DNA of 64,000 nt. It comes from Modestobacter altitudinis (GTDB taxonomy: Bacteria; Actinomycetota; Actinomycetes; Mycobacteriales; Geodermatophilaceae). Below, piece by piece: positions 2,168-43,363 of the stretch (position 1 is its first letter; every line of letters starts with the position of its first letter). The notes beneath the pieces are model-generated. The model worked only from the letters and a program-made list of their open reading frames with translations. It searched no databases and was not told where the DNA came from. Location: positions 62,001-126,000 of the forward strand of contig NZ_SJEW01000002.1 in NCBI RefSeq assembly GCF_005930475.1, given 5' to 3'. Made by a program: the position numbers and the translations under genes.

Positions 2168-2221
2168 GGCCCCCTCCAGGGGCCCGCCCTGAGCTTGCGA
2201 AGGGTGGGGAGGAGGGGGTCC
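2168..2221 (-). repeat. Stop-proximal palindromic repeat, copy A (after guaA)
   Basis: Member of the dispersed family described in the findings. Outer arms GGCCCCCTCC (2168-2177) and GGAGGGGGTCC (2211-2221) pair. The inner stem pairs CCCGCCCT with AGGGTGGG around a GAGCTTGCGA-like loop. In the guaA direction the element starts immediately after the TAA stop codon, with no gap. Confidence 0.75.
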
Positions 2222-3790
2222 TTACTCCCATTCGATGGTGCCCGGCGGCTTGCTGGTCACGTCGAGCACCACGCGGTTGACCTCGGCCACCTCGTTGGTG
2301 ATCCGGGTGGAGATCCGCGCCAGCACGTCGTAGGGCAGCCGGGTCCAGTCCGCGGTCATGGCGTCCTCGCTGGACACCGGGCGCAGCGCGATCGGATGGC
2401 CGTACGTGCGCCCGTCGCCCTGCACCCCCACCGAGCGGACGTCGGCCAGCAGCACCACCGGGCACTGCCAGATCTCGGTGTCCAGGTGTGCCGCGCTGAG
2501 CTCTTCGCGGGCGATCGCGTCGGCCTGGCGCAGCACGTCGAGCCGTTCCCGGGTGACCTCGCCGACGATCCGGATCCCGAGGCCGGGCCCGGGGAACGGC
2601 TGGCGCTGCACCAGGGTGTCGGGCAGCCCCAGCTGGCGGCCGACCTCGCGCACCTCGTCCTTGAACAGCGTGCGCAGCGGCTCGACCAGGGTGAAGGTCA
2701 GGTCCTCGGGCAGCCCGCCTACGTTGTGGTGGCTCTTGATGTTCGCCGTCCCGGTGCCGCCGCCGGACTCGACGACGTCGGGGTACAGCGTGCCCTGCAC
2801 CAGGAAGTCGACGGTCTCGCCGTGCTCCTTCGCGTCCCCGATCACGTCGAGCGCGGCCTGCTCGAAGACCCGGATGAACTCCCGGCCGATGATCTTCCGC
2901 TTCTGCTCGGGGTCGCTGACCCCGGCGAGTGCGGCCAGGAACTGCTCGCCGGCGTCGACGACCCGCAGGTCGGCACCGGTCACGGCGACGAAGTCGCGCT
3001 CGATCTGCTCGGTCTCGCCCTGCCGCATCAGCCCGTGGTCGACGTAGACGCAGGTGAGCCTGTCGCCGATCGCCCGCTGCACCAGCGCCGCGGCGACCGC
3101 GGAGTCGACCCCGCCGGACAGCCCGCAGATCGCCCGCCGGTCGCCGATCTGCTCGCGGATCGTGGCGACCTGATCGTCGACGACGTTCGCCATCGTCCAG
3201 GTCGGCTGCAGCCCGGCGATGTCGAAGAGGAAGTGCTCGAGCACCGTCTGGCCGTGCGGGGTGTTCTTGACCTCGGGGTGGAACTGCACCCCGGCCAGCC
3301 GCCGGTCGACGTCCTCGAAGGCGGCGACCGGGGCACCGGTGGACGTGGCGGTGACGGTGAACCCGGGCGGCGCGGCGCTGACGGCGTCCCCGTGGCTCAT
3401 CCACACCGACTGCTCGTTCGGCAGGTCGCCGAACAGCCGGGCCCGGGTGGTGACCGTCAGCGGGGTGCCGCCGTACTCCCGGTCGCCGGTGCGGGCGACG
3501 GTGCCGCCGAGGCTGGCCGCCATGGCCTGGAACCCGTAGCAGATGCCGAAGGCCGGGACCCCGGCCTCGAACACCGTCGGGTCCACCTGCGGAGCGCCCT
3601 CGGCGTAGACGCTGGACGGTCCACCGGACAGCACGATCGCCGCCGGCTTGCGGGCCAGCAGCTCCTCGACCGGGACGTCGGAGCCGACGAGCTCGGAGTA
3701 GACCCCGGCCTCACGGATCCGGCGGGCGATGAGCTGGGCGTACTGCGCCCCGAAGTCGACGACCAGGACGGTCGGGAAGTCCATGCTCAT
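2222..3790 (-). CDS. guaA: GMP synthase (glutamine-hydrolysing)
   Basis: A 522-residue enzyme that converts XMP to GMP using glutamine and ATP, the last step of GMP synthesis. The N-terminal class I glutamine amidotransferase domain has its nucleophile in GICYGFQ (Cys84) and the His/Glu pair in FHPEV. The ATP pyrophosphatase domain carries the P-loop LSGGVDS (around residue 230), and the dimerisation domain ends in PGTIEWE as in the family. The ATG at 3790 overlaps the stop of the GuaB3-like gene as ATGA, implying translational coupling; ATG 3784 is the alternative. It is last in the guaB-guaB3-guaA series and is followed directly by a palindromic repeat. Confidence 0.97.
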
Positions 3791-4956
3791 CCGAGCAGGT
3801 GCCCCTCGGCTGCGGCCCCGGCGCCGCCGCCACCGAGGACCAGGTCGACCCGCTGGAACTCCTTGAGGTCCCGGTAGCCGGTCTTGGCCATCGTGCGGCG
3901 CAGCGCACCGAAGAGGTTGGTGCGCCCGTCGGCGGCCTCGGCCGGGCCGAGCAGCACCTGCTGCAGGGTCCCGCGCGGGGTGGCCGGGGCGGACGTCCCG
4001 CCGCGCGGGAGCCGCGGGTGCGCCGCGACCGAGTCCCACCAGACGCCGCCGCCGGGGGCCTCGGCGGCGGCCCGCAGCGGCTCCCCCACCTGGACGGCGT
4101 CGGCGCCGCAGGCCAGCGCGCGGGCGATCGCCCCGCTGGTCTCGATCCGGCCGTTGGCGATGACGTGCACGTACCGGCCACCGGTCTCGTCGAGGTAGTC
4201 GCGGCGGGCCGCGGCGGCGTCGGCGATGGCGCTGGCCAGCGGCACCCGGATGCCCATCACCGCGTCGGCCGTCGACCAGCTGTCGGCGCCGACGCCGACG
4301 ATGACGCCGGCCGCGCCGGTGCGCATGAGGTGCAGCGCGGTCTGGTAGTCCGCGGCCCCGCCGACGATCACCGGGACGTCGAGGTCGGCGATGAACTCCT
4401 TGAGGTTCAGCGCCTCCCCGCCCTTGGTGACGTGCTCGGCGGAGACGATGGTGCCCTGGATGACCAGCAGGTCCACCCCGGCGGCGAGCACGGTCGGGGC
4501 CAGCTGCACGGTGTGCTGCGGGGAGACGCGCACCGCCGTCGTCACGCCCGAGTCGCGCATCTCCTTGATCCGCGCGGTGACCAGGTCGGGCTTCACCGGC
4601 TCGGCGTAGACCTGCTGCAGCAACGCCGTGGGCGGACCGGTCTCCGGCGATGCGGCGTCGCGGAGCTGCCGGTAGACGTCGGTGGGGTCGTCGTACCGGG
4701 TCCACAGGCCCTCGGCGTTGAGCACCCCGAGGCCACCGGCCTGGCCGACGGCGACCGCGGTCGCGGGGCTCACCACGGCGTCGCTGGGGCTGGTGACCAG
4801 CGGGATGTCGAACCGGAAGGCGTCGATCTGCCAGGAGGTCGAGACGTCGTCGTGGTCGCGGGTGCGCCGCGACGGGACGATCGACACCTCCTCCAGGTCA
4901 TAGCCCCGGCGGGCGAACCGGTTCAGGCCGATCTCGACGTTGTCGCGTACGGGCAA
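3787..4956 (-). CDS. guaB3: GuaB3 family IMP dehydrogenase-related protein
   Basis: A 389-residue IMPDH/GMP-reductase barrel protein without CBS domains. [20 protein letters not shown] and [19 protein letters not shown] are hallmarks of the actinobacterial GuaB3 group. The position of the IMPDH catalytic cysteine loop reads GADSWSTAD, so the nucleophilic Cys is absent, as I recall for mycobacterial GuaB3; its physiological role is unsettled. No ATG or GTG is available upstream in frame, so the best start is TTG at 4956, just after a duplicated piece of the guaB 3' end. It lies between guaB and guaA, as in Mycobacterium and Streptomyces. Confidence 0.88.
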
Positions 4957-4959
4957 CGG

Positions 4960-4994
4960 GTCACCGACCTCGGTAGTTGGGGGCTTCGGTGGTC
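4960..4994. repeat. Tandem copy of the guaB 3' end (copy 1)
   Basis: 35 bp matching 5019-5053 with one mismatch (position 4979). Copy 2 encodes the last residues and stop of GuaB ([10 protein letters not shown]), so copy 1 is a duplicated coding tail lying in the guaB-guaB3 spacer. It closes a tiny ORF starting at ATG 5016 (18 codons, product ending [11 protein letters not shown]). Confidence 0.85.
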
Positions 4995-5018
4995 TCGCGG
5001 ACGGAGGTGGAGCTCATC

Positions 5019-6636
<1,618 letters not shown>

Positions 6637-6724
6637 TTACCGTTGTGGGTTGGCGGGCACGTCTGCCCGACTGCTGAGCGACCAGCAGCGCCGAACACGC
6701 CGGCCATCCCGGCAAGGAGGACAC

Positions 6725-7147
6725 GTGGACGCGTGGGACGACGCATTCGGCGCTTCCCCTGACCGTGACCCGGACTTCGGGCCGGACGACCGGTCGGGGC
6801 AGCCGCCGCTGACCATGGAAGAACGCGCCGGGGTGCTCGACGACCTCGCCGAGCTGGAGGTCTTCCGCACGCTGCTGGAGCCGACCGGGGTCAAGGGCAT
6901 CGTCGTCGACTGCCCGGACTGCGACGAGGAGCACCACGTCGACTGGGCCCTGATGCAGGCCAACCTGCGGCAGCTGCTCGACGAGGGCCAGACCGGCCGG
7001 CACGAGCCGCCCTTCGACCCCGACCCCGACGACTACGTCAGCTGGGACTACGCCAGCGGCTACGCCGACGGGGTGGCCGCACTCGCCGAGCGCGAGGAGC
7101 CCAGCGGCCGGCACGGTTCCACGGGCCGGCACGCCCGCGACGACTGA
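6725..7147 (+). CDS. DUF5319-like small acidic protein
   Basis: A 140-residue, very acidic soluble protein. The GTG at 6725 is chosen because of the strong AAGGAGG site upstream. It contains a Cys-x-x-Cys pair in [14 protein letters not shown] (around residue 62), a helical middle section, and a C-terminal part with [16 protein letters not shown] conserved protein of this type sits divergently beside guaB in many actinobacteria (annotated as DUF5319); its function is unknown. The CxxC plus His could bind a metal, but only one pair is present. Nothing in the sequence ties it to purine metabolism beyond position. Confidence 0.75.
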
Positions 7148-7170
7148 CGGACCCGCTCCGCGCGAGGTCG

Positions 7171-7242
7171 AGCCGCCTCGTCGACCGTCGACCCGCGCTG
7201 CAGCGCGGCTCGACCGTCGCTGAGGCGGCTCAGGCCCGTCGA
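7171..7242. repeat. 72 bp hairpin repeat, left copy (flanks the AbiEi-like gene)
   Basis: 72 bp aligning without gaps to 8361-8432, about three quarters identical. It starts AGCCGCC and ends GGCGGCTCAGGCCCGTCGA in both copies. It is an imperfect palindrome (AGCCGCCT with AGGCGGCT; inner GCGCTGCAGCGC). The stop codon of the AbiEi-like gene (7230-7232) lies inside it. It also serves as the convergent 3' region of the gene ending at 7147. Confidence 0.75.
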
Positions 7243-8252
7243 CTCGAGGCGCACACCCGCCCCACGTCACGGGGCACGGCACGGAACGCCCGAATTGCGC
7301 GCCCTTGCGAGGCGAGCTCGCGGCGGAGCCGGGCCTCGACGGGCGCCCACCCGGGCCCCAGGTGCTCGTCGACGATCCGGACGAACCGGACCCCGACCGA
7401 GCGCAGCAGGTCCTCGCGGAGCTCCTCGTCGAACAGCACGTCCTCGGGGCGACCGCCGTAGGCCGGCCGGACGTACTTCACCCGGCCGGCGAACTCCACC
7501 GCCAGCGCAGCGTCCTCGTACCAGCCGTCGGCGACCTTCACGAGCTCGCCGTCCACCCACAGCTCGACCTGCGGGACGAACGGTGGCAGCCCGGCGGCGC
7601 GGAAGCAGAGACGGCCCTTGGTCTCCAGCCACGACTCGGCCCGCCCGTCCGCAGCCGCGACGGCACGGACCGCGCGCGGCAGTCGGGGCGCGTACCGGTG
7701 GCGGTCCAGCGTCCCGCGCAGCTCCTCCGGGGTGACCAGCCCGCGCAGCAGGGCGGCGTCCAGGGCAGCCACCGCCGGCAGCTCGGACCACTCACGGGCC
7801 GTGTCGACGAGCGTGCGGGCCGCCGTCGTGACCCGGTGGCCGCCCACCTCGGTCACCTCGGCGTCCGGGAGCTCGGCCCGGACCATCATGTAGCCGGGAC
7901 CGCTGCGCCAGCGGTGCGGGTCGACCAGCCGGACCTCCGGGGCCAGCCCGACCGGCAGGGGCAGGCGCCAGAGGCGGGCGGCCGTGCCGTGGCTGAGCGC
8001 CGCACCCGGCCGGGCGAGCGCCGTCGTCACGACCCGGACGTCCAGCTCGTGCCGCCGACCGTCCGCCTCCAGCAGCGCGAGGTCGGCAGCGGTGACGAAC
8101 GACCCGCGGCGCAGCCGGACCCATGCCCCGGAGCGGACGGCGCTGCGCACCTCCGCCTCGGTGACGCCGGCTGCGGCGAGGTCAGCGCTGGTGAACAGAC
8201 CCGATCGGGTGGACGCAGCGACCCGGACCGGGCCGGGCAGGGGATGGCTCAC
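7230..8252 (-). CDS. AbiEi-type antitoxin-domain / DUF559-like protein
   Basis: A 340-residue protein from a GTG at 8252. The N-terminal about 60 residues ([20 protein letters not shown] then RLRRGSFV) are a winged-helix of the AbiEi antitoxin type. The middle part resembles AbiEi-like regulators ([10 protein letters not shown]). The C-terminal part (about 215-320) resembles the DUF559/very-short-patch endonuclease-like fold: [19 protein letters not shown], then [15 protein letters not shown] and [13 protein letters not shown]. Such proteins are widespread and often multicopy in actinobacteria. No AbiEii-type toxin partner is nearby. Related 72 bp hairpin repeats on both sides suggest it may move as a small cassette. 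Confidence 0.7.
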
Positions 8253-8306
8253 GCGTGGATGGTCGGGCGGCGGACCGCCGTGGCACGGTCCGCGAGCCGG
8301 GATGTG

Positions 8307-8339
8307 GACAGGCCGTCGTCCGGTGGACGACGGCCTGTC
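8307..8339. terminator. 15 bp perfect hairpin
   Basis: Arms 8307-8321 (GACAGGCCGTCGTCC) and 8325-8339 are perfectly complementary with a 3 nt loop. It lies between the BldM-like gene's 3' end and the start of the AbiEi-like gene, so it probably ends read-through from the former. Confidence 0.65.
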
Positions 8340-8360
8340 AGGGAGCGCTGGGTGTGCTGA

Positions 8361-8432
8361 AGCCGCCGCCTCGACCGTTGAGCCGGGTCACGCCCCGGCT
8401 CCACGGTCGACAGGGCGGCTCAGGCCCGTCGA
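8361..8432. repeat. 72 bp hairpin repeat, right copy
   Basis: Partner of 7171-7242. It folds well: AGCCGCC/GGCGGCT outside, TCGACCGT/ACGGTCGA next, GAGCCGGG/CCCGGCTC inside. It begins 10 nt after the stop of the BldM-like gene, so it likely also works as its terminator. Confidence 0.75.
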
Positions 8433-8442
8433 GCGAGTCAGG

Positions 8443-9210
8443 TCAGGACATCATCCCGCGGCGGAAGCCGGTGGCGACCGCCTCGGCGCGGTCCTTGGCG
8501 CCGAGCTTGCGGAACAGCCGGCGGGCGTGGGTCTTGATGGTGTCCTCGGACAGGTAGAGCTCGCGGCCGATCTGGGCGTTGCTCTTGCCCTGGCTCATGC
8601 CGGTCAGCACCTGCATCTCGCGCATCGAGAGCGCGACCTGCGGCGTCTCGGGAACGGTCGAGCGGACGGTGGTCGGGGCGGCCGCGGCCAGCGGGCTGGC
8701 ACCGCCCCAGGGCGACGGGCCGGACGGCGCGCCACCGGCACCGGACAGCGCGACGGCGTGCTGCGCAGCGCGCGGTGCGGGGGCGAGCTGCGGGCGGCCG
8801 GCGAGCTCCGGGCGCATCCCGGTGCGGGACAGGCCCAGGCCCAGCTCGAGCGGGCTGGCGTCCCAGCGGAGGTACCCGCGGGCGCCGAGGGCGACCGCGG
8901 CGCGGACGGTCTCCGCGTCGTCCGGGGCGCCGAGCAGCAGCACCGGCACCGAGGGGTGCGAGCGCAGCACCTGGGTGGCGACGGACAGCCCGCTGTCGGT
9001 GGCGCGCTGGGTGCCCACGAGCAGCACGTCGGGGAGGCGGTTGTCCAGCCGGGTGCGCAGCGAGACCGCGTCACCGACCGCCTCCACCCGGCTGACGAAG
9101 GACAGCGCGAGCAGCCGGCCGGCGACCTCGTCGCGGACCCGGCGTCGTTCGTCGAACACCCAGACCACGGCCCCACCGTTGCCGTTGCCGCGCATCCTGT
9201 CCTCGATCAC
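8443..9210 (-). CDS. bldM: BldM-like LuxR-family regulator with degenerate receiver domain
   Basis: A 255-residue DNA-binding protein. The C-terminal LuxR/FixJ helix-turn-helix (about 195-255: EMQVLTGMSQGKSNAQIGRE, LYLSEDTIKTHARRLFRKLG) closely resembles Streptomyces BldM. The N-terminus keeps the receiver fold, including GARGYLRWDAS, but the phospho-acceptor position after strand 3 reads DVLLVGTQ, so the usual Asp is a Gly. A 50-residue Ala/Gly/Pro linker, longer than in BldM, joins the two parts. It is divergent from a WhiB3/WhiD-type gene, like whiD-bldM in Streptomyces. GTG 9210 is used; ATG 9195 is an alternative. Confidence 0.82.
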   Translation of the reverse strand: MIEDRMRGNGNGGAVVWVFDERRRVRDEVAGRLLALSFVSRVEAVGDAVSLRTRLDNRLPDVLLVGTQRATDSGLSVATQVLRSHPSVPVLLLGAPDDAETVRAAVALGARGYLRWDASPLELGLGLSRTGMRPELAGRPQLAPAPRAAQHAVALSGAGGAPSGPSPWGGASPLAAAAPTTVRSTVPETPQVALSMREMQVLTGMSQGKSNAQIGRELYLSEDTIKTHARRLFRKLGAKDRAEAVATGFRRGMMS

Positions 9211-9590
9211 CGTTGCTCCCGTCTGCGCCGGCCGGGCCGGCGACGTACCGTCCGGGCGTCGCCCGGGCGGGTGCTGGGAACGGGACTGCCCCCGTGCCCA
9301 GGGGTGCCGACGTCGTCCGGTGTCCCGGACGGGTGTCGGGTGTCCCCCACCTCACCGTGGTCGGCACTCCCTGTGATCACCTTGATCCCCTGCGTAGCTA
9401 CTGGACAGCGACCATCACCCCGGCGGGTGAGGCACGGAGGGACCCGGACGAGGCGTGCCAGCGGATAGGCACATCCCGACGGTTTCCGCACCACGAGCGC
9501 GTGGCGTCGTGTTTGCGCCTCGTCGGCAGCGGGCATCGGCCCGGAAGTGACCGGGCAGACCCCCCGGTGCACCTGAGCCGAGGAGGTCCA
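9211..9590. other. Divergent regulatory region between bldM-like and whiB genes
   Basis: 380 bp with no convincing gene. It must hold the promoters of both divergent regulators. A TAGCTA hexamer (9396-9401) is a possible -10 for the leftward gene, but no good -35 accompanies it. No confident promoter was found for whiB. Self- or cross-regulation is plausible but not shown by the sequence. Confidence 0.5.
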
Positions 9591-9890
9591 ATGGCTGACA
9601 TCCGCCGACTGCCCAACCCCGTCGCCGAGGTGTGGGACTGGCAGTTGCACGGCAGCTGCCGGGGCGAGAGCACGTCGCTCTTCTTCCACCCCGACGGCGA
9701 GCGCGGGCCGGCCCGGGCCCGGCGGCAGGCAGCCGCCAAGGCGGTCTGCGGACGCTGCCCCGTCCTGGAGTCCTGCCTGCAGCACGCACTGTCGGTCCGC
9801 GAGCCCTACGGGGTCTGGGGCGGCATGAGCGAAGAGGAGCGGGCACGCCTGATCGCCGCGGAGCCCGCGGCCATCGCTGCCGGGGTCTGA
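9591..9890 (+). CDS. whiB: WhiB-family iron-sulfur regulator (WhiB3/WhiD type)
   Basis: A 99-residue WhiB-like protein from ATG 9591, preceded by GAGGAGG. The four [4Fe-4S] ligands are Cys23, Cys53, Cys56 and Cys62 (C-x29-C-x2-C-x5-C), followed by the GVWGG turn (74-78) and a short C-terminal region. WhiB proteins bind sigma factor region 4 and respond to redox or nitric oxide. The neighbourhood (guaB on one side, groES-groEL on the other, next to a BldM-like gene) is that of mycobacterial whiB3 and Streptomyces whiD, so orthology is likely. The basic tail usual in DNA-binding Wbl proteins is not evident; the end is Ala-rich. Confidence 0.92.
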   Translation: MADIRRLPNPVAEVWDWQLHGSCRGESTSLFFHPDGERGPARARRQAAAKAVCGRCPVLESCLQHALSVREPYGVWGGMSEEERARLIAAEPAAIAAGV

Positions 9891-9920
9891 GTTCGACGCG
9901 GGAAGCCTCCACCCGCGGTG

Positions 9921-9971
9921 CATGCCGAGAGGGCCGGTCCGACACGTCGTCGGACCGGCCCTCTCGGCATG
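9921..9971. terminator. Bidirectional 23 bp perfect hairpin
   Basis: Arms 9921-9943 (starting CATGCCGAGAGGGCCGG) and 9949-9971 are perfectly complementary around a 5 nt loop. It lies between the convergent whiB (stop 9890) and GGDEF gene (stop 9982), so it can serve both. Confidence 0.85.
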
Positions 9972-9981
9972 TGCGTCCCGG

Positions 9982-11748: not shown

Positions 11749-11804
11749 GGCCCCGTCCAGAGGCTCACCCCGAACCCGCGGGGGGTGAGGAGGACGAGGT
11801 CCTC
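11749..11804 (-). repeat. Stop-proximal palindromic repeat, copy I (after groEL)
   Basis: Outer arms GGCCCCGTCC and GGACGAGGTCC pair with one mismatch. The inner stem is CTCACCCC/GGGGTGAG with a CGCGGG-type loop. In the groEL direction the GGACC edge begins 5 nt after the stop codon. Confidence 0.6.
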
Positions 11805-11807
11805 CCG

Positions 11808-33820: not shown

Positions 33821-33927
33821 GTCGGTCCTTCCTCAGGCGGCCGGGCGGGCGTGTGCCGGCTGCGTCGTCCATCGCGGTGGTGCAGGGTGCGGTGCTGCGT
33901 TCGGGACCAGTGTGGCGGGCCCGAGGT

Positions 33928-33986
33928 GGCCCCGCTGCCGGGCCCCACCGCGAGCGTGCGAGCGGTGGGGGGCAGCGGGGTCCTTC
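33928..33986 (-). repeat. Stop-proximal palindromic repeat, copy B (after rpoA)
   Basis: Outer arms GGCCCCGCTGCC and GGCAGCGGGGTCC; inner stem CCCCACCGC/GCGGTGGGG around GAGCGTGCGA. In the rpoA direction GAAGGACC begins 2 nt after the TGA. It lies in the 167 nt gap before rplQ, inside the alpha operon. Confidence 0.85.
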
Positions 33987-33987
33987 T

Positions 33988-35055
33988 TCAGAGCTGCTCG
34001 GTCTCCTGGTACGCGGTCTCGTCGTACGTGGCAGGGTCGCCGTAGCTGGCGTCACCCTGGTACGCGTCGGTCTCGTACCCCTCGTCGTAGCTCTCCACCG
34101 AGGTGGGGACGAACCCGGGCGGGCTGTCCTTGAGCGCCAGGCCCATCGCCGCGAGCTTCAGCTTGACCTCGTCGATCGACTTGGCACCGAAGTTGCGGAT
34201 GTCGAGCAGGTCGGCCTCCGAGCGGGTGACGAGCTCCCCGACGGTGTGCACACCCTCGCGCTTGAGGCAGTTGTAGGACCGGACGGTGAGGTCCATGTCC
34301 TCGATCGGCATCGAGAAGTTCGCGATGTCGGCGGCCTCGGACGGGCTCGGACCGACCTCGATGCCCTCGGCGTCGACGTTCAGCTCGCGCAGCAGACCGA
34401 AGAGCTCGACGAGGGTGGAGCCGGCGCTGGCGATCGCGTCGCGGGGCTCCATCGACGGCTTGGTCTCGACGTCGACGACCAGGCGGTCGAAGTCGGTGCG
34501 CTGCTCGACGCGGGTGGCCTCGACGGCGTAGGTCACCTTCAGCACCGGGGAGTAGATCGAGTCGACGGGGATGCGACCGATCTCCTGGCCGGGCTGCTTG
34601 TTCTGGGTGGCCGGCACGTAGCCGCGGCCGCGCTCGACGACCAGCTCGATCTCGAGCCGGCCCTTCGCGTTCAGCGTGGCGATGTGCAGGTCGGGGTTGT
34701 GCACCTCGACACCGGCCGGGGGCGCGATGTCGGCGGCGGTGACCTCACCCGGGCCCTGCTTGCGCAGGTACATGGTCACCGGCTCGTCGGAGTCGGAGCT
34801 GACCACGAGGCCCTTGAGGTTCAGGATGACCTCGGTGACGTCCTCCTTGACGCCCGGCACGGTGGTGAACTCGTGCAGGGTGCCCTCGATGCGGATGCTG
34901 GTGACAGCAGCGCCGGGGATCGAGGACAGCAGGGTGCGACGCAGCGAGTTGCCGAGGGTGTAACCGAAGCCCGGCTCGAGCGGCTCGATGACGAACCGTG
35001 AGCGCTGGGCGTCGATGGTCTCCTCGGTGAGGGTCGGACGCTGTGCGATGAGCAT
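33988..35055 (-). CDS. rpoA: RNA polymerase alpha subunit
   Basis: 355 residues. The N-terminal assembly domain (about 1-230) includes [20 protein letters not shown] and [22 protein letters not shown]. The C-terminal domain (about 245-315) contains the DNA- and activator-contacting helices ([39 protein letters not shown]). An acidic Tyr-rich tail of about 35 residues follows ([17 protein letters not shown]). ATG 35055; between rpsD and rplQ. Confidence 0.98.
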
Positions 35056-35150
35056 GGTGGATCTCCTTCGTGTCCTCCGGCGACCGCCATATGACGCCGT
35101 GAGGGGGGTGGTGCCGGCGGGGCGGACATCGGTCCACCCGCCCCGCCTTC

Positions 35151-35209
35151 GGCCCCCCTGCAGGGTCCTACCGCGAGCTTGCGAGCGGTGGGGGGCAGGG
35201 GGGTCCTTC
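35151..35209 (-). repeat. Stop-proximal palindromic repeat, copy C (after rpsD)
   Basis: Outer arms GGCCCCCCTGC and GCAGGGGGGTCC; inner TACCGC/GCGGTG around GAGCTTGCGA. GAAGGACC starts 2 nt after the rpsD stop (TAA, then CA). It sits in the 156 nt rpsD-rpoA gap. Confidence 0.85.
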
Positions 35210-35211
35210 TG

Positions 35212-35838
35212 TTACTTGGAGTAGAGCTCCACGATCAGCTGCTCCTGGACCGGGGTGTCGATCACCTGACGGGCCGGGATGTTGTGCACCAGGACCCGCA
35301 GCTGGGAGGTGATGACCTCCAGCCACGGCGGCACCGGCCGCTGCCCGGCGCGGGCCTGGGCGAGCTGGAACGGGACCATCTCGACGGACTTCGCCGACAC
35401 CTCGACGATGTCGTTCGCGGTCACGCGGTAGGACGGGATGTCCACCTTGCGACCGTTGACCCTGATGTGGCCGTGGCGCACGAACTGGCGCGCCATGTCC
35501 CGGGTCTCGGCGAAGCCGGCCCGGTAGACCACGTTGTCGAGGCGGGACTCGAGGATCTGCAGCAGGACCTCACCGGTCTTGCCCGACTTCTTGTTCGCCT
35601 CTTCGTAGTAGCCGCGGAACTGCTTCTCCAGCACGCCGTAGATGCGGCGGGCCTTCTGCTTCTCGCGGAGCTGGAGCAGGTACTCGCTGTCCTTGGTGCG
35701 ACCCCGGCCGTGCTCGCCCGGCGGGTAGGGCCGGATCTCGATCGGGCACTTCGGGGACTCGCACTTGCTGCCCTTGAGGAACAGCTTCATCTTCTCGCGC
35801 CGACACATGCGGCAGTCGGGTCCGGTGTAACGGGCCAC
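35212..35838 (-). CDS. rpsD: 30S ribosomal protein S4
   Basis: A 208-residue 16S rRNA-binding assembly initiator. The N-terminus MARYTGPDCRMCRREKMKLF retains two cysteines (a further one near CESPKCP), a zinc-site remnant seen in several S4 proteins. The S4 RNA-binding domain holds RLDNVVYRAGFAETRDMARQ and HGHIRVNGRKVDIPS. Follows rpsK. Confidence 0.97.
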   Translation of the reverse strand: MARYTGPDCRMCRREKMKLFLKGSKCESPKCPIEIRPYPPGEHGRGRTKDSEYLLQLREKQKARRIYGVLEKQFRGYYEEANKKSGKTGEVLLQILESRLDNVVYRAGFAETRDMARQFVRHGHIRVNGRKVDIPSYRVTANDIVEVSAKSVEMVPFQLAQARAGQRPVPPWLEVITSQLRVLVHNIPARQVIDTPVQEQLIVELYSK

Positions 35839-35873
35839 GTCAAATACTCCTGTTTCGTCTCGTCAGTGACCGG

Positions 35874-36281
35874 TCAGACCCGGCGGCGCTTCTTGGGGCG
35901 GCAGCCGTTGTGCGGCTGCGGCGTCACGTCCTGGATCTGCCCGACCTCGAGGCCGGTGGCCTGCAGGGAGCGGATCGCGGTCTCGCGACCGGAGCCCGGG
36001 CCCTTCACGAAGACGTCGACCTTGCGCATGCCGTGCTCCTGGGCCTTGCGCGCAGCGTTCTCCGCAGCCATCTGCGCCGCGAACGGCGTGGACTTGCGGG
36101 AGCCCTTGAACCCGACGTGCCCGGCGGACGCCCAGCTGATCACGTTGCCCGTGGGGTCGGTGATCGACACGATCGTGTTGTTGAAGGTGCTCTTGATGTG
36201 CGCCGCGCCGTGGGCGACGTTCTTCTTCTCCTTGCGGCGCACCTTCTTGGTGCCAGCTGCCGCGCGAGCCCTGGGAGGCAT
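35874..36281 (-). CDS. rpsK: 30S ribosomal protein S11
   Basis: A 135-residue platform protein of the small subunit. [39 protein letters not shown] and the end [18 protein letters not shown] are diagnostic. ATG 36281 gives [20 protein letters not shown], the actinobacterial basic N-terminus. The rpsM-rpsK gap is about 104 nt. Confidence 0.97.
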
Positions 36282-36385
36282 CTCTCTCCGGTCTGAGTCT
36301 GTGTTCGTGGCCTGGGTGGTGCAGGTGCAGGCACACCGCCGATCCGGCCCTCTCGGACCTGCGGCGGTGCGCCGTCAAGCGTGGG

Positions 36386-36760
36386 TCAGCGGGCCTTCTT
36401 CTTGCCCGCGATGGTCTTGCGCGGGCCCTTGCTCGAGCGCGCGTTCGTCTTGGTGCGCTGCCCGTGCACCGGGAGACCGCGGCGGTGCCGGATCCCCTGG
36501 TAGCAGCCGATCTCCACCTTGCGGCGGATGTCGGCGGCCACCTCGCGGCGCAGGTCGCCCTCGACGCGGAAGTGCTCGTCGATGTAGTCGCGCAGCTTGA
36601 GCAGGTCCTCGTCGGACAGGTCCTTGGCGCGCAGGTCCGGGCTGACGCCCGTCGCGGCCAGGGTCGCCTTGGCCGAGGTCGGCCCGATCCCGTAGATGTA
36701 GGTGAGTGCGATCTCCATCCGCTTCTCGCGGGGGAGGTCGACGCCAGCCAGACGTGCCAT
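36386..36760 (-). CDS. rpsM: 30S ribosomal protein S13
   Basis: A 124-residue protein contacting tRNA and the large subunit. ATG 36760 gives [40 protein letters not shown] and the basic tail [20 protein letters not shown] are typical. 14 nt after rpmJ. Confidence 0.97.
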
Positions 36761-36774
36761 GTTCAGGTACTCCC

Positions 36775-36888
36775 TCAGCCCTGGCGCTGCTTGTGCCGGG
36801 CGTTCTCGCAGATGACCATGACCCGGCCGTGCCGGCGGATCACCTTGCACTTGTCACAGATCTTCTTCACCGACGGCTGGACCTTCAC
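36775..36888 (-). CDS. rpmJ: 50S ribosomal protein L36
   Basis: A 37-residue zinc-ribbon protein: [20 protein letters not shown] then [15 protein letters not shown]. Zinc ligands Cys11, Cys14, Cys27 and His32 are all present (C+ form). GTG 36888 gives the canonical length; an in-frame ATG at 36903 would add five residues. Confidence 0.96.
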
Positions 36889-36955
36889 CGGTGCCGCCCT
36901 CATTCCTGTAGATCGAGCGCCGGCTCCAGCCCCTCGGGGCACGTCCGGCGGTGGG

Positions 36956-37177
36956 TTACTTGTAGCGGTAGACGATGCGCCCACGGGTCAGGTCGTAGGG
37001 CGAGAGCTCCACGACCACGCGGTCCTCGGGCAGGATGCGGATGTAGTGCTGCCGCATCTTGCCGCTGATGTGGGCGAGCACCCGGTGCCCGTTCTGCAGT
37101 TCGACCCGGAACATCGCGTTGGGAAGCGGCTCGACGACACGACCCTCGACCTCGATGGCCCCGTCCTTCTTTGCCAC
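36956..37177 (-). CDS. infA: Translation initiation factor IF-1
   Basis: A 73-residue S1/OB-fold protein. GTG 37177 gives [40 protein letters not shown] and [16 protein letters not shown] complete the standard length. First gene of the infA-rpmJ-rpsM-rpsK-rpsD-rpoA-rplQ-truA unit, behind a good promoter candidate. Confidence 0.97.
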
Positions 37178-37355
37178 GCCTACACGGCCTCCTCGTTCGA
37201 TCGAACTGCTCGCGCCCATGCCGGAGCCGGCAGGGCGGTCGTACTGGGTTCAGCGCCGGAGATGGCACTGGAGGGGTGGTGCGGGCGATCTCGCAGAGGG
37301 CGCCCGACTCCCTGCGGCCACAGCAGGACGACGGACGGCGCGAACGCCATCGGCC

Positions 37356-37385
37356 ACTGTACTCCCAGGACGACGAGCTCTCCAA
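37356..37385 (-). promoter_or_regulatory. infA (alpha operon) promoter
   Basis: On the minus strand TTGGAG (37380-37385), 18 nt, TACAGT (37356-37361). It lies in the map-infA gap and predicts a leader of about 170 nt before infA. Confidence 0.6.
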
Positions 37386-37409
37386 CCCGGCTCCGGTGAC
37401 CACCACCAC

Positions 37410-37468
37410 GGCCCCGTCGCAGGGACCCGGCGCGAGCGGAGCTCGTGTTGGGGGGCGACGGGGTCCTT
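37410..37468 (-). repeat. Stop-proximal palindromic repeat, copy D (after map)
   Basis: Outer arms GGCCCCGTCGC and GCGACGGGGTCC; loop region GCGAGCGGAGCTCG. It starts 2 nt after the map stop and separates map from the infA promoter. Confidence 0.85.
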
Positions 37469-37470
37469 CC

Positions 37471-38274
37471 TCAGCTGCGGGCAGTGACGCCGAAGGGTGC
37501 GAGACCGGCGACGCCGCCGTCCTCGGCGGTGAGGACCCAGGGGCCCTCGGCAGTGATGGCGACGCTGTGCTCGAAGTGCGCGGCGCGCGACCCGTCCTTG
37601 GTGACGACGGTCCACCCGTCGTCCAGCTCGGCGGTGGCGGGGTCCCCGATGGTCACCATCGGCTCGATCGCCAGCACCAGCCCCGGCACCAGCTTGGGGC
37701 CGCGGCCCGCCCGGCCGTAGTTGAGCACGTGCGGGTCCTGGTGCATCTCGGTGCCGATGCCGTGCCCGCCGTAGTGGTCGACGATGCCGTACCGGTGCTC
37801 GTGCGCCACGATCGACTCCTCGACCGCATGGCTGATGTCGGTCAGCCGCCCGCCGGCGATGGCCTTGGCCAGTCCGGCCCACATCGACTGCTCGGTCACC
37901 GCGAGGAGTTCGGCGTCTCCGGCGGAGGCCTCCCCCACCGTCACGGTCACCGCCGAGTCGCTGTGCCAGCCGGCCAGGACGGCGCCGCAGTCGATGGAGA
38001 TGTTGTCGCCCTCGGCCAGCCTGCGGTCCGGGTCGGGGATGCCGTGCACGACCTCGTCGTTGATCGAGGCGCAGATGGTCCCGGTGAACCCGTGGTAGCC
38101 GAGGAAGTTCGGTACGGCACCTGCGGACCGGATGTGGTCCTCGGCGATGGCGTCGAGCTCGCCGGTGCTCACCCCTGGGCGGACCGCGGCGCGGACGGCC
38201 TTGATGGCCCCGGCCGTGACCAACCCGGAGGCGCGCATCAGCTCGATCTCGTGCGCGGTCTTGATCTGGATCAT
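37471..38274 (-). CDS. map: Type I methionine aminopeptidase
   Basis: A 267-residue metalloenzyme removing N-terminal Met from nascent proteins. Metal ligands: Asp95 (NISIDCG), Asp106 (HSDSAV), His171 (GGHGIG), Glu204 (AIEPM), Glu235 (FEHSV); substrate His77. ATG 38274 has GGAG about 8 nt upstream and starts MIQIKTAHEIELMRASG; an in-frame GTG at 38340 would add 22 residues. secY-adk-map order is standard. Confidence 0.96.
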   Translation of the reverse strand: MIQIKTAHEIELMRASGLVTAGAIKAVRAAVRPGVSTGELDAIAEDHIRSAGAVPNFLGYHGFTGTICASINDEVVHGIPDPDRRLAEGDNISIDCGAVLAGWHSDSAVTVTVGEASAGDAELLAVTEQSMWAGLAKAIAGGRLTDISHAVEESIVAHEHRYGIVDHYGGHGIGTEMHQDPHVLNYGRAGRGPKLVPGLVLAIEPMVTIGDPATAELDDGWTVVTKDGSRAAHFEHSVAITAEGPWVLTAEDGGVAGLAPFGVTARS

Positions 38275-38356
38275 ACGTCCACTCCACTTCGCCAGGAACG
38301 GCAGCCGGGACGCCCACGCGTCGACGCGGTCACCGTGCACCGGGCGACCCGCGCTC

Positions 38357-38979
38357 TCAGTCCTCGGCCTGGTCGCCGGCCGCGTCCTGGGCCAGCGCCT
38401 CGTCGGCCCCGAGCGCCTCGAGGGCGCGGCGGGTCACCTCGTCGATCTCACCGATCGCGTCGATGCGGGCCAGCAGTCCGGCCCGCTCGTAGAACCCCGA
38501 CAGCGGCGCCGTCTGTTCCCGGTAGACCTCCAGGCGGTGCCGGACGGTCTCGGGCTTGTCGTCGTCGCGCTGCACCCACGCGCCGTCCACCAGCATCCGG
38601 CGCCCGGACAGCCGGCGGACCAGCTCGTCCTCGTCGACGACGAGCTCGAGGCAGCAGTCCAGCGCGTGGCCCATCTCGGCCAGCGAGTCACGCAGCTGGT
38701 CGGCCTGGGCGATCGTGCGCGGGAAGCCGTCGAGCAGGAAGCCTGCCTTGGCGTCGGGCTCGGCGAGCCGGTCGGAGACCATCGCCACGGTGATCTCGTC
38801 GGGCACCAGGTCGCCGGCGTCCATGTAGGCCTTCGCCTGCTGGCCCAGCTCGGTCTGCCCGCTCACGTTGGCGCGGAAGATGTCACCGGTGGAGATGGCG
38901 GGCACGGCCAGCCGAGCGGCGATGACCTGGGCCTGGGTCCCCTTGCCCGCTCCGGGAGGGCCCAGCAGCACGACGCGCA

Positions 38980-38980
<1 letters not shown>
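38357..38980 (-). CDS. adk: Adenylate kinase
   Basis: A 207-residue enzyme interconverting ATP + AMP and 2 ADP. The P-loop is [34 protein letters not shown] and [15 protein letters not shown] bind AMP. The lid is of the short type (residues around 125-135) without zinc cysteines. A C-terminal acidic extension of about 20 residues is present. The GTG start overlaps the secY stop by one base (TAGTG). Confidence 0.96.
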
Positions 38981-40290
<1,310 letters not shown>

Positions 40291-40330
40291 GTGCCCTCCC
40301 CGAGTCGGTCGTGTGAATCTATCAACGTGT

Positions 40331-40387
40331 GGAAGGACCCACCTGCCCCCCACTCGCGGGCTCGCGGCGGGGCCCTGCAGGCGGGCC
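40331..40387 (+). repeat. Palindromic repeat, copy E1 (secY leader, inverted)
   Basis: Opposite orientation to the other copies: GGAAGGACCCACCTGC on the plus strand, ending GCAGGCGGGCC. The loop contains CTCGCGGGCTCGCGG. It lies 41 nt upstream of the secY start codon, in the mRNA leader, 13 nt from copy E2. Confidence 0.8.
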
Positions 40388-40400
40388 GAGAACAGCGAAA

Positions 40401-40486
40401 GGCCCCCCTGCAGGCGACCCCTTCCCGGGTCCCGCCCCCCGCGTGCGAGGGGTGGGGAGGAGAGGTCCCCACAGGGGGGTCCTTCG
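40401..40486 (-). repeat. Palindromic repeat, copy E2 (after rplO), nested form
   Basis: Outer arms GGCCCCCCTGC (40401) and ACAGGGGGGTCC (to 40482). It is longer than other copies because a second element-like unit (GGACC...GGGGTC) sits inside the loop, so it looks like one repeat inserted in another. GAAGGACC starts 1 nt after the rplO stop. Confidence 0.75.
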
Positions 40487-40933
40487 TCAGATCTGGGTGG
40501 TGCTGCCCCCGGCAGCGCCGATCTTCTCCAGGGCGGACTGGGAGAAGGCGTGCGCGTGCACGTGCACCGTCACCCCGCCCAGCTCGCCCGAGCCGAGGAC
40601 CTTGACCGGCTGACCGCGCCGGACGGCGCCGGCGTCGGCCAGCGTGTCCGGGTTGATCGAACCACCCTGCGGGAACAGGGAGGCGATCCGGTCCAGGTTG
40701 ACGACCTGGAAGACGACCTTGTTGTTGTTGGTGAAGCCCGAGAGCTTGGGCAGCCGCATGAACAGCGGCGTCTGGCCGCCCTCGAAGCGGGCCGAGACCT
40801 GGACGCGAGCGCCCGAGCCCTTGGTGCCGCGCCCGGCAGTCTTCCCGCGCTTGCCGCCCTCACCGCGACCCACCCGGACCTTCTTGGTGTGGGCACCCGG
40901 CGCCGGACGCAGGTGGTGGACCTTGAGAGTCAT
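40487..40933 (-). CDS. rplO: 50S ribosomal protein L15
   Basis: A 148-residue protein. [40 protein letters not shown] and [20 protein letters not shown] identify it. It lies between rpmD and secY, but a 196 nt gap with two palindromic repeats separates it from secY. Confidence 0.97.
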
Positions 40934-40949
40934 GTCAGCGTTCCCCTGC

Positions 40950-41132
40950 TCAGACGATCTCTTCGACGGTGACCAGGTGCGGCACCGTCGCGACCATCCC
41001 GCGGATCTCGGGACGGTCCTCCTGGACGACCGAGTCGCTGATCCGCTTCAGCCCCAGCGAACGCAGCGTCTGACGCTGGTTCGGCTTGGTGCCGATGGCC
41101 GACTTGATCTGCGTGACCTTCAGCTGAGCCAT
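40950..41132 (-). CDS. rpmD: 50S ribosomal protein L30
   Basis: A 60-residue protein: [20 protein letters not shown], then [17 protein letters not shown] and [14 protein letters not shown]. Standard length. 1 nt after the rpsE stop. Confidence 0.96.
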
Positions 41133-41133
41133 C

Positions 41134-41775
41134 TCAGACCCCCTGACCGGCCCGCGCGCGCAGCATGGCAGCTGGGGCGACGTCCTCCAGGGGCAGACCG
41201 CGGCGAGCCGCGATCTCCTCGGGGCGGACGAGGTCCTTCAGCGCCTGCATGGTCGCGTGGACGATGTTGATCGGGTTGGAGGACCCGAGGCTCTTCGAGA
41301 GCACGTCGTGGATGCCGGCGCACTCGAGGACGGCGCGCACCGGGCCACCGGCGATGACGCCGGTACCGGGGCTGGCCGGCTTGAGCAGCACGACACCGGC
41401 CGCCGCCTCACCCTGCACCGGGTGCGGGATGGTGCTGGCGATGCGAGGCACGTTGTAGAAGTGCTTCTTGGCCTCCTCGACGCCCTTGGCGATCGCCGCG
41501 GGCACCTCCTTGGCCTTGCCGTAGCCCACGCCGACCTTGCCGTCGCCGTCGCCCACGATCACCAGGGCGGTGAAGCTGAACCGCCGACCACCCTTGACGA
41601 CCTTGGACACGCGGTTGATCGCGACGACGCGCTCGATGAACTGGCTCTTCTCCGCGGCACCGCCCGGGCCGCGCCCGCCGTCACGACGGTCCCGGCGGTC
41701 GTTGCCGCCGCCGCCTGCGCCGCCGGGGCCACCGGTCCCGCCGGCGCCACCGCCGCGTCGCTGTGGTCCTGGCAT
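41134..41775 (-). CDS. rpsE: 30S ribosomal protein S5
   Basis: 213 residues, against 166 in E. coli. An N-terminal extension of about 45 residues is Gly/Arg/Asp-rich and low-complexity. The double-stranded RNA-binding domain has [20 protein letters not shown] and [20 protein letters not shown]; the C-terminal fold has [21 protein letters not shown]5 monitors accuracy and helicase activity at mRNA entry. Confidence 0.97.
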
Positions 41776-41812
41776 CAGACGTCCCTCTCGATCAGTTCAT
41801 AAATGGTGGTCA

Positions 41813-42229
41813 TCAGAAGTCCAGCCCACCCTCGCGGGCACCGTCGGCCAGCGCCGCGATGCGGCCGGCGTACCGGTTGCCACCACGGTCGAAGACGACC
41901 GCGTCGATGCCGGCGGCCTTGGCGCGCTCAGCGACCAGGGCACCGACTCGACGGGCGAGGGTGGACTTGTCGCCCTCGCTGCCCTTCAGGCTGGCGTCCA
42001 TCGTCGACGCGCTGGCCAGCGTGCGGCCGACCGTGTCGTCGACCACCTGGACGTGGATGTGCCGGGAGCTGCGCTTGACGACCAGGCGCGGCCGCTCCGG
42101 CGTGCCGCCCACCCGCTTGCGCAGGCGGTTGTGGCGGCGGAGCCGCGAGACGCGGCGCGCGGTGCTGACGTCGGTGCCGACGGGCTTGTGCACCCGGGCA
42201 CCGCTCTTGGTGTTCGCTGCCTGTGCCAT
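41813..42229 (-). CDS. rplR: 50S ribosomal protein L18
   Basis: A 138-residue 5S rRNA-binding protein. ATG 42229 overlaps the rplF stop (TGATG). [40 protein letters not shown] and [20 protein letters not shown] are typical. Confidence 0.96.
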
Positions 42230-42768
42230 CACTTGCCCGTCTTCCCGACCTTGCGCTTGATGACCTCGCCCTGGTACCGCACGCCCTTGCCCTTGTAGGG
42301 GTCAGGCTTGCGGATCTTGCGGATCTTGGCGGAGACCTCGCCCACCTGCTGCTTGTCGATGCCGCTCACCCGCAGGCGGGTGGGGGCCTCGACGGTGAAG
42401 GAGATCCCCTCGGGGGCCTTCACGATGACCGGGTGGCTGAAGCCGAGGGCGAACTCGAGGTCCGTCCCACGGGCCTGCACGCGGTAACCGACGCCGACGA
42501 TCTCCAGGGTCTTGTCGTACCCCTGGGTCACACCGGTGATCATGTTCGCGATGAGCGTGCGGGACAGGCCGTGCAGGGCCCGGCTCTCGCGCTCGTCGTT
42601 GGGCCGCTGCACCAGCAGCGTGCCCTCCTCACCGCGCTCGACGGTGATGGGAGCAGCCACCGTGTGGCTGAGCTTCCCCTTCGGCCCCGAGACGTTGACC
42701 GTGCGCCCGTCGATGGCGACGTCCACACCGCTGGGCACCGGAACCGGGAGTCGTCCGATCCGTGACAT
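42229..42768 (-). CDS. rplF: 50S ribosomal protein L6
   Basis: A 179-residue protein near the factor-binding site. [33 protein letters not shown] and the C-terminal [20 protein letters not shown] are signatures. Between rpsH and rplR. Confidence 0.97.
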
Positions 42769-42783
42769 GTCTGCTCGCTCCTC

Positions 42784-43194
42784 TTACCAGACGTAGGCGA
42801 GGACTTCCCCACCCACGCCCTTCTTGGTCGCCTGCTTGTCGGTCAGCAGCCCGGTGGAGGTGGAGATGATCGCCACCCCGAGGCCGCCGAGCACCTTGGG
42901 CAGGGCGGTCGACTTCGCGTAGACGCGCAGGCCGGGCTTGGACACCCGTCGGACGCCGGCGATGCTGCGCTCACGGTTGGGGCCGTACTTGAGGGAGACC
43001 ACGAGCTCCTTGCGGACGTGGCCGTCCACCTCGACGTCGTTGACGGTCCAACCGCCGATGTACCCCTCCTTCTGGAGGATCTCGGCGATGTGCGTCTTGA
43101 GCTTCGACGACGGCATGGCAGCTGCGTCGTGGTACGCCTGGTTGGCGTTCCGCAGCCGCGTGAGCATGTCCGCGATCGGGTCGGTCATCGTCAT
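42784..43194 (-). CDS. rpsH: 30S ribosomal protein S8
   Basis: A 136-residue 16S rRNA-binding protein. [20 protein letters not shown] and [20 protein letters not shown] are diagnostic. ATG 43194 is used; ATG 43188 is two codons downstream. A 169 nt gap with palindromic repeat F separates it from rpsN. Confidence 0.97.
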
Positions 43195-43304
43195 GGGTGA
43201 GTGGTGCCTCTCTCGCCGCGGTTCCGCACGCGTCTCGCGCGGGCCTCTCGGCGATCAGTGGTGCTGTGTGAGGTGACCTGCTGGTCGGGTCGTACGACTG
43301 GAAC

Positions 43305-43363
43305 GGCCCGGCCGCAGGGACCCTCGACGCGCGGAGCGTGTCGTGGGGTGCAGCCGGGTCCTC
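43305..43363 (-). repeat. Stop-proximal palindromic repeat, copy F (after rpsN)
   Basis: Outer arms GGCCCGGCCGC and GCAGCCGGGTCC with one mismatch; inner CGACGCGC/GCGTGTCG around GGA. The element begins directly after the rpsN TAG (GAGGACC) and lies inside the spc operon. Confidence 0.75.

What the first reader, a model, noticed from the sequence alone, without database searches (positions are those of the whole stretch)
2168..43363. A dispersed palindromic repeat family that hugs stop codons
Eight elements (2168-2221, 11749-11804, 33928-33986, 35151-35209, 37410-37468, 40331-40387, 40401-40486, 43305-43363) share one plan. The plus-strand layout is GGCCC + variable arm + AGGGnCC + inner stem + loop like GAGCTTGCGA + variable arm + GGGTCCTTC. 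Outer arms differ between copies but remain largely complementary: CTCC/GGAG, GCTGCC/GGCAGC, CCTGC/GCAGG, GTCGC/GCGAC. That covariation argues for selection on an RNA or DNA fold. Seven of the eight place the GGACC edge 0-5 nt after a leftward gene's stop codon (guaA, groEL, rpoA, rpsD, map, rplO, rpsN). A simple terminator role is hard to reconcile with copies inside the alpha and spc ribosomal operons. They could be attenuators, mRNA 3'-end or processing signals, protein-binding sites, or REP-like mobile palindromes with a strong insertion preference.
Basis: partly seen in the sequence, partly recalled or inferred. Interest (0 to 1): 0.8.

Follow-up and report, generated by a model that had tools for sequence, protein, structure and literature searches.

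The report
Palindromic repeats parked at stop codons
A family of soil bacteria carries a short, hairpin-forming DNA repeat in up to hundreds of copies per genome, and most copies sit with almost base-exact precision at the stop codons of genes, like a mobile element that homes on gene ends; what moves it is unknown.

Summary
The eight places hold copies of a ~57-60 bp nested palindrome (GAAGGACC-arm-inner hairpin-GGGnCCCT-arm'-GGCC); one (40401-40486) is a copy inside another palindrome. The own genome has about 150 scored copies, 310-335 by extrapolation. The family was found in 47 of 57 kin-group (Geodermatophilaceae) genomes, 0 of 40 from sister families, and only the own genome among 396 of the phylum. 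In samples not chosen by hit position (window included), 73 of 102 copies start within 6 nt of a same-strand stop codon, 46 of them exactly TGA+1 or TAG+2; TGA as a DNA word does not explain this. Orthologous sites are filled in some relatives and empty in others, copies nest, and paralogues reach 98% identity, so the family has spread. Arms covary between copies, yet 12 orthologues of one copy show no two-sided change, suggesting foldability is selected during propagation. Y1 (RAYT-type) transposases are absent from 35 of 35 family genomes. Best reading: a REP-like, non-autonomous palindromic element with stop-codon-anchored insertion or retention and an unknown mobiliser, lacking the GTAG/CGTC tag and RAYT of known REP superfamilies. 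Effects on mRNA remain inference.

The parts
2168..2224 (-). element copy after guaA; its 5' edge overlaps the TAA stop
   Evidence: (70.0 bits, seed sequence)
11749..11805 (-). element copy after groEL (TGA+2), followed by the GTTCCAGCGCGTCACC 3' extension
   Evidence: (62.6 bits, seed sequence)
33928..33986 (-). element copy after rpoA (TGA+1), before rplQ
   Evidence: (73.9 bits, seed sequence)
35151..35209 (-). element copy after rpsD (TAA+2), before rpoA; the site is empty in at least four named relatives (L038, L039, L040, L043)
   Evidence: (78.4 bits, seed sequence)
37410..37469 (-). element copy after map (TGA+1), with the GAGCTCCGCTC-type loop
   Evidence: (63.6 bits, seed sequence)
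40332..40387 (+). inverted element copy between rplO and secY, not at a stop
   Evidence: (60.1 bits, seed sequence)
40401..40486 (-). outer palindrome GAAGGACCCCCCTG...CTGCAGGGGGGCC beginning 1 nt after the rplO TGA; host of a nested element; by eye a similar nested pair stands at the same site in Geodermatophilus sp. TF02-6 (L045)
40416..40471 (-). inner (nested) element copy
   Evidence: 38.3 bits, E 1.1e-5; not in the model's seed
43305..43364 (-). element copy after rpsN; the G of its TAG stop is the element's first base; copies at the same junction in 7 of 11 named relatives, a degenerate one in 1, none in 3
   Evidence: (61.0 bits, seed sequence)

Best explanation
It is a non-autonomous, REP-like mobile palindrome of the Geodermatophilaceae, about 57-60 bp, that has copied itself through the genome and lodges at translation stop codons, preferentially with the GAAGGACC edge next to the stop. 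Shown: sharp element edges, many copies, near-identical paralogues, empty and occupied orthologous sites, nested and composite copies, stop-codon register. Inferred: propagation goes through a folded single strand or cruciform, so only copies with matched arms multiply; this explains covariation between copies without compensation within the one orthologous site tested. The mobilising enzyme is unknown and no Y1/RAYT enzyme is encoded in the family genomes searched. Once in place, the copy gives the host gene's mRNA a stable hairpin starting 1-2 nt after the stop codon. By analogy with E. coli REPs it could slow terminating ribosomes, shield the mRNA 3' end or attenuate downstream operon genes, but nothing here tests that.
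For: Copies: 152 matches from 150 scored candidates in the own genome; 56 in 864 kb of it, window included (5 of the 56 have E > 0.001); 29 in 800 kb of two relatives (6 with E > 0.001); 17 in 400 kb of a third (1 with E > 0.001). Range: 47/57 kin-group genomes, 0/40 outside; strict pattern in 46/57, reversed-pattern control 0 in all 57; own genome only among 396 of the phylum. Nearest-paralogue identity >=95% for 10/88 copies, >=90% for 49/88, top 98%. Dispersed matches up to 97% identical to the rpoA copy in other species. Polymorphic sites, read by eye: one site filled in 12 of 14 genomes, another in 7 of 16 with 2 remnants and 7 empty; rpsN, rpsD, map and rplO junctions in 11 named loci. 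Nesting. Placement: 38/56 and 18/29 within -4..+3 of a same-strand stop versus 9.1 and 5.6 expected; 15/17 within 6 nt in a third genome. Covariation between copies but 0 two-sided changes among 12 orthologues.
Against: No transposition event was observed; no target-site duplication and no autonomous parent were found. Some sites are held across much of the family (rpsN), which fits function as well as mobility. Of all 168 copies examined, 9 abut a stop in the opposite orientation and 37 are not at a stop. The in-place test rests on one slowly diverging site with one doubtful row. Host genes have higher codon adaptation (0.790, n = 31, versus 0.751, n = 635; p = 0.002), which a functional reading also predicts.
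Confidence: 0.68

Rival explanations
1. Function first: a cis-acting mRNA 3' element (ribosome-stalling, 3'-end protection or attenuation) under selection at each gene, with stop-codon proximity being part of the function.
For: Sense orientation bias (antisense at a stop: 3 observed versus 9.1 expected in G000, 2 versus 5.6 in G020+G055) and register to real stops: 30 copies follow a called TGA stop and 4 another TGA, although the G000 sample has 1731 non-stop intergenic TGAs against 720 TGA stops. Some sites are kept across genera (rpsN). Higher codon adaptation of host genes. In E. coli, REPs within 15 nt of a stop are reported to stall ribosomes (passages of PMC12306157 and PMC5082802, which cite Liang et al. 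2015; that paper was not held).
Against: Presence varies between relatives at every junction compared where an element stands. No in-place compensation at the one site tested. The folded strand is not clearly the mRNA strand: mean composition-corrected z is -1.99 on the gene strand and -2.56 on the other. Family genomes scored as complete live without it: G039 and G097 (strict pattern only).
Confidence: 0.2
2. Transcription terminators or attenuators that evolved in place.
For: Stable hairpins downstream of genes. Divergent gene pairs nearly lack it (1/136, 1/135, 1/71 in G000, G020+G055, G007). Convergent pairs hold it more often than tandem pairs in G000 (17/138 versus 30/538) and G020+G055 (11/134 versus 14/476), but not clearly in G007 (3/64 versus 11/267).
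Against: No general U-run follows the hairpin on the gene strand. Near-identical copies at unrelated genes are not expected of terminators evolving in place. Of sense-at-stop copies followed by a co-directional gene, 7/20, 6/9 and 7/11 have that gene's start within 60 nt.
Confidence: 0.07
3. RAYT-mobilised REPs in the strict sense.
For: Palindromic, intergenic, downstream of genes, termini overlapping stop codons, like REPs (PMC3733652).
Against: PF01797 absent in 35/35 family genomes, with 5/14 control genomes and 3/24 other-family genomes positive. No GTAG tag; GACG (the CGTC complement) stands before the element in only 1 of the 15 own-genome copies that are not at a stop (listing).
Confidence: 0.02
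4. A small retro-element, copied by reverse transcription with priming at the stop-codon edge.
For: By eye the 5' junction at the stop codon is sharper than the 3' surroundings, and the strand opposite the gene folds somewhat better.
Against: RVT_1 is found in only 29/57 family genomes and in none of G014, G024, G026, G036, all of which carry the element. Much of the strand difference in folding energy is base composition.
Confidence: 0.03

Closest known systems
REP / BIME elements (GTAG and CGTC superfamilies, RAYT-associated)
   Same: Short dispersed palindromes, many copies, mostly downstream of genes, between tandem and convergent genes; GTAG termini often supply a stop codon; CGTC REPs have no known transposase (PMC3733652: abstract, section 15 and passages seen).
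   Different: Longer (57-60 bp versus 20-40 bp), two stacked helices with a fixed bulge and asymmetric internal loop; no GTAG/CGTC tag; no Y1 transposase in the family genomes searched; stop register often exact to the base; host in Actinomycetota ('actinobacteria' does not occur in that paper's main text, though it names an untagged family in M. tuberculosis).
E. coli REPs within 15 nt of stop codons
   Same: Hairpin close behind a stop codon; reported to stall ribosomes (passages of PMC12306157 and PMC5082802).
   Different: There 446 of 4072 predicted REPs, or 260 of 496 in the earlier study as cited there, lie within 15 nt; here 73 of 102 lie within 6 nt with a mode of TGA+1.
MIRU of mycobacteria
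   Same: Actinobacterial short repeats that appear mobile and insert at gene junctions in operons (one passage of PMC12548453; the original paper is only recalled).
   Different: By that passage MIRUs carry an ORF coupled to the downstream gene and insert at start codons; this element is a palindrome behind stops.
MITEs
   Same: Small, non-autonomous, hairpin-forming.
   Different: No constant target-site duplication seen and no parental transposon found here.

Membership tests
REP (GTAG or CGTC tagged) | unpaired GTAG or CGTC tetranucleotide at one end | tested here: not met
   Edge profile of 45 copies shows GAAGGACC/GGCC edges; the G/A at -3/-2 comes with stop codons; among the 15 not-at-stop copies of the G000 sample GACG stands before the element in 1.
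REP (RAYT-mobilised) | Y1 (IS200/IS605-like) transposase in the genome | tested here: not met
   PF01797: 0/35 family genomes; 3/24 other-family genomes and 5/14 controls positive.
REP-like repeats, broad sense | dispersed multi-copy extragenic palindrome, mainly 3' of genes | tested here: met
MITE | terminal inverted repeats plus target-site duplication, related autonomous transposon | tested here: inconclusive
   Ends are imperfect inverted repeats (GGaCC/GGCC). Reading filled and empty sites by eye showed no constant duplication. In 864 kb, 28 exact GAAGGACC lie -10..+60 from a stop: 24 are model hits, 3 are nested hosts and 1 lies 60 nt away, so no split parent was seen there; the other 83% of the genome was not read.
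Intrinsic terminator | hairpin followed by U-run | tested here: not met
   Downstream base profile of 45 copies: T at most 14 of 45 at any of 45 positions; single copies were not scored one by one.
Known Rfam family | covariance-model match | tested here: not met
   0 matches at gathering scores in the window and 0 at E<=1 over 33900-35260, which holds two copies.
MIRU | small ORF coupled to the downstream gene at a stop/start junction | not tested
   Not analysed; one empty allele has a TGATG junction.

The most novel reading that the evidence does not exclude
A mobile DNA element whose insertion reads the translation stop itself, not a DNA word: it enters within or just behind stop codons (T^GA, TA^G), with its own first G completing the codon or standing 3 nt behind the stop's G. 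This would imply a target defined by terminating ribosomes or the mRNA, and a mobiliser unlike IS200/IS605.
Probability: 0.2. Interest if true: 0.88.

Novelty: new variant of a known kind. Interest (0 to 1): 0.62.

Why it matters
It is a REP-like family in Actinomycetota with no REP transposase found and an unusually exact address: the stop codon, in register. That gives a clean system for two open questions: how transposase-less REP families spread, and what a stable hairpin directly behind a stop codon does to termination, mRNA 3' ends and operon balance. Patchy presence within genera (no strict-pattern copy in G039 and G097, up to 37 and 45 in congeners) makes a comparative search for the mobiliser possible.

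Tried and rejected
RAYT/Y1 transposase: absent. Reverse transcriptase as mobiliser: distribution does not match. Rfam: nothing. Plain GAAGGACC terminators as source of the signal: behind stops GAAGGACC is nearly always the element or a nested host (27 of 28). Transposase genes inside a dense cluster of copies (C73, about 75-83 kb): none seen, judged only from the first 70 residues of the called genes. Viral contigs: 0 matches to two subtype patterns; plasmid and phage collections were not searched. Element-free relative G039: no GAAGGACC-type word among the 14 words most enriched behind stops in 324 kb; a weak test, because element-bearing G055 shows no AAGGACC there either.

Antisense-strand RNA idea: the strand opposite the gene folds better in 153/168 copies, and A.C mismatches (G.U on the other strand) exceed G.T. 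Shuffles show that composition explains much of this. After correction the other strand is still better in 119/168 (p = 2e-10, copies not independent), but outside two fixed positions the mismatch ratio is only 36:20, p = 0.044. I do not build on it.

DNA word TGA as sole target: rejected, with the caveat that gene calls are home-made and selection against insertion elsewhere is not modelled. Literature: 9 papers; the Geodermatophilaceae genome paper uses 'palindromic' only for CRISPR, passages; 0 papers; 1, 1, 43 of which 10 listed, 3, 3 papers. No description of this family was seen in these listings and passages, which cover open-licence PMC papers only.

Rows dropped: one of 35 hits (overlapping opposite-strand hit); 12 of 61 hits (11 already held, 1 partial). 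66 of the 168 copies (34 in named RpoA loci, 32 top-scoring or pattern-found) are left out of the 102-copy placement count. The 800 kb of G000 come from long contigs seen, not chosen by hit position but not random; without the window the count is 67 of 94.
Full report
OBSERVATION. The window lies in G000:C84 (5.18 Mb, 161 contigs), 72% G+C. The eleven best RpoA relatives are Goekera, Blastococcus, Geodermatophilus and Trujillonella (92-95%), so I take the host's kin group f1 to be Geodermatophilaceae (inference); the genus was not determined. All eight reported places are present. Pfam supports guaA, groEL, rpoA, rpsD, map, rplO and rpsN as the neighbouring genes. The covariance model R1 was built with seven of the window copies, so their scores are by construction; the eighth, 40416-40471, was found independently with E = 1.1e-5. 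40401-40486 is a nested pair.

ANATOMY. On the upstream gene's strand: GAAGGACC, variable arm, C-rich inner stem and loop, GGGnCCCT, complementary arm, GGCC. The A of GGACC is a conserved bulge and nCCCT a conserved asymmetric internal loop. Edges are sharp: the base profile of 45 copies drops at once outside GAAGGACC and GGCC, apart from G/A upstream (stop codons) and a G (31/45) downstream. By eye there are at least three subtypes of inner loop. In 19 of 119 copies GGCC is followed by a GnTCCA-type extension, in some GTTCCAGCACGTCACC.

COPY NUMBER AND RANGE. Own genome: 152 matches at E <= 1 with only 150 of 15615 candidates scored. In 864 kb: 56 copies, 8 of them in the window, hence about 310 (without window) to 335 per genome. 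Densities: 65 per Mb in G000, 36 in G020+G055, 42 in G007. Range at E <= 0.001: 47 of 57 kin-group genomes and 0 of 40 in other families of the order. In a draw of 396 genomes of the phylum only the own genome matched; there the filters were strict and few candidates per genome were scored. A strict pattern finds copies in 46 of 57 family genomes (a partly different draw) with 0 in the reversed-pattern control. It is patchy inside genera: g12 ranges from 0 (G097) to 45, g11 from 0 (G039) to 37.

PLACEMENT. With a home-made gene caller, 73 of 102 copies from the samples (G000 38/56 with the window, G020+G055 20/29, G007 15/17) have their GAAGGACC edge within 6 nt of a same-strand stop; 5 abut an opposite-strand stop; 24 are elsewhere. 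Without the window it is 67 of 94. Of the 73, 46 are exactly TGA+1 (39) or TAG+2 (7), and 9 more are TGA-2 or TAG-1. Against random placement in the same gaps on either strand, counting -4..+3: 38 observed versus 9.1 expected (p = 1e-17) and 18 versus 5.6 (p = 6e-7); antisense placement at stops is below expectation (3 versus 9.1, 2 versus 5.6). In the common states the stop's G is either the element's first G or the base 3 nt before it: with the 34 named-locus copies included, TGA goes with offset 1 mod 3 in 39/53 and TAG with offset 2 mod 3 in 18/21 (Fisher p = 1.6e-8 on the 68 with offset 1 or 2); without them 32/42 and 10/13. TAG/TAA stops are over-represented at elements (12/38 versus 108/828 overall, p = 0.002). 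TGA as a DNA word is not enough: the G000 sample has 720 TGA stops and 1731 non-stop intergenic TGAs, but of 85 copies (G000, G020, G055) 30 follow a called TGA stop at the exact register and 4 another TGA. Of the ten copies in near-identical (>=96%), probably young, pairs, 8 are within 2 nt of a sense stop, 1 is 1 nt from an antisense stop and 1 is elsewhere.

MOBILITY. Orthologous sites, read by eye, are filled in some species and empty in others, with the stop already present in the empty alleles. Site 6104 of L149: filled in 12 of 14 genomes including the own. Site 9791: 7 of 16 filled, 2 remnants, 7 empty. In 11 named relatives the rpsN, rpsD, map and rplO junctions vary likewise (part of that printout was cut); at rpsN the three empty alleles end in TAA while filled ones end in TAG or TGA. 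Copies sit inside other copies. A composite of about 115 nt (GAAGGTC-element-TGACCCC-half element) recurs in other genomes; in 19 of the 20 examples read a TGA or TAG stands directly before it, though genes were not called there. Paralogues reach 98% identity.

COVARIATION. Between copies: 126 two-sided cells versus 43.8 in shuffles (A3, 56 copies) and 58 versus 17.6 (A4, 29 copies); slid pairings give at most 26 and 13. These alignments were fitted to the model, but the MAFFT seed alignment agrees (17 versus 4.8). Within one orthologous site of 12 genomes: 0 two-sided changes, 13 one-sided departures and 1 one-sided restoration. Four of the 13 come from the own copy, whose alignment is doubtful, and three share one pair and may be one event, so the test is small. 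As it stands, arms are matched when copies multiply and then decay. Selection for foldability during propagation, or hairpin-templated self-correction of palindromes (recalled mechanism), explains this better than selection for RNA structure at each gene.

WHAT MOVES IT. Not a Y1/RAYT enzyme of the host (0/35 family genomes). RVT_1 does not track the copies (29/57). No split or autonomous parent was seen in the 864 kb sample.

POSSIBLE FUNCTION. Divergent gene pairs nearly lack it; tandem and convergent pairs hold it, convergent ones more often in two of three samples. Host genes have higher codon adaptation (0.790 versus 0.751, p = 0.002). A hairpin this close to a stop should meet terminating ribosomes; E. 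coli REPs within 15 nt of stops are reported to stall ribosomes (passages of PMC12306157, PMC5082802). Here this is inference only. Which strand folds is unresolved: composition-corrected z is -1.99 on the gene strand and -2.56 on the other.

KNOWN KIND. Di Nocera et al. 2013 (PMC3733652; abstract, section 15 and passages seen) describe REPs as mostly 3' of genes, with GTAG termini often supplying a stop, CGTC REPs without transposase, and untagged families in some species. The present family works like these but fails the tag and RAYT tests, so I file it as a new REP-like variant, not as a member of those superfamilies. I saw no description of it.

VERDICT. Real, widespread in its family, mobile by comparative evidence, and anchored at stop codons with rare precision; kind known, variant new, mobiliser and effect unknown.

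Noticed in passing
L149:12080-12185; L191-L210: Composite unit of about 115 nt (GAAGGTC-element-TGACCCC-half element; GGTC/GACC could close a stem) recurs in other genomes, a TGA or TAG directly before it in 19 of 20 examples: a second, larger member of the family.
   Followed up: partly
window 11749-11805 downstream; L128:12317, L118:5512, L155:9096, L203, L204: A 16-nt 3' extension like GTTCCAGCACGTCACC follows the GGCC edge in a subset of copies, sometimes leading into another half element.
   Followed up: partly
G040:C24:140450-140640 and C18:2-126: Identical copies in head-to-tail tandem (period 66 bp, three and two copies) in a relative, so the element can also amplify locally.
   Followed up: no
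G039 and G097 (no strict-pattern copies), G025 (1 copy): Near-complete genomes without or nearly without strict-pattern copies while congeners have up to tens: a natural experiment for finding the mobiliser.
   Followed up: no
G017 and G002, site orthologous to L149:6104: Both empty alleles have a hairpin that contains the stop codon (CTCTGACC...GGTCAGAG); in occupied alleles the element stands where its upper part was.
   Followed up: no
L044 and L048, downstream of rpsN: Relatives without the element at this junction carry a different GC-rich palindrome (GGCC..GGCGCTCGCC..GGCC type) there.
   Followed up: no
window 401-558 and 852-1009: Two 158-nt direct repeats, 72% identical, 451 bp apart.
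   Followed up: no
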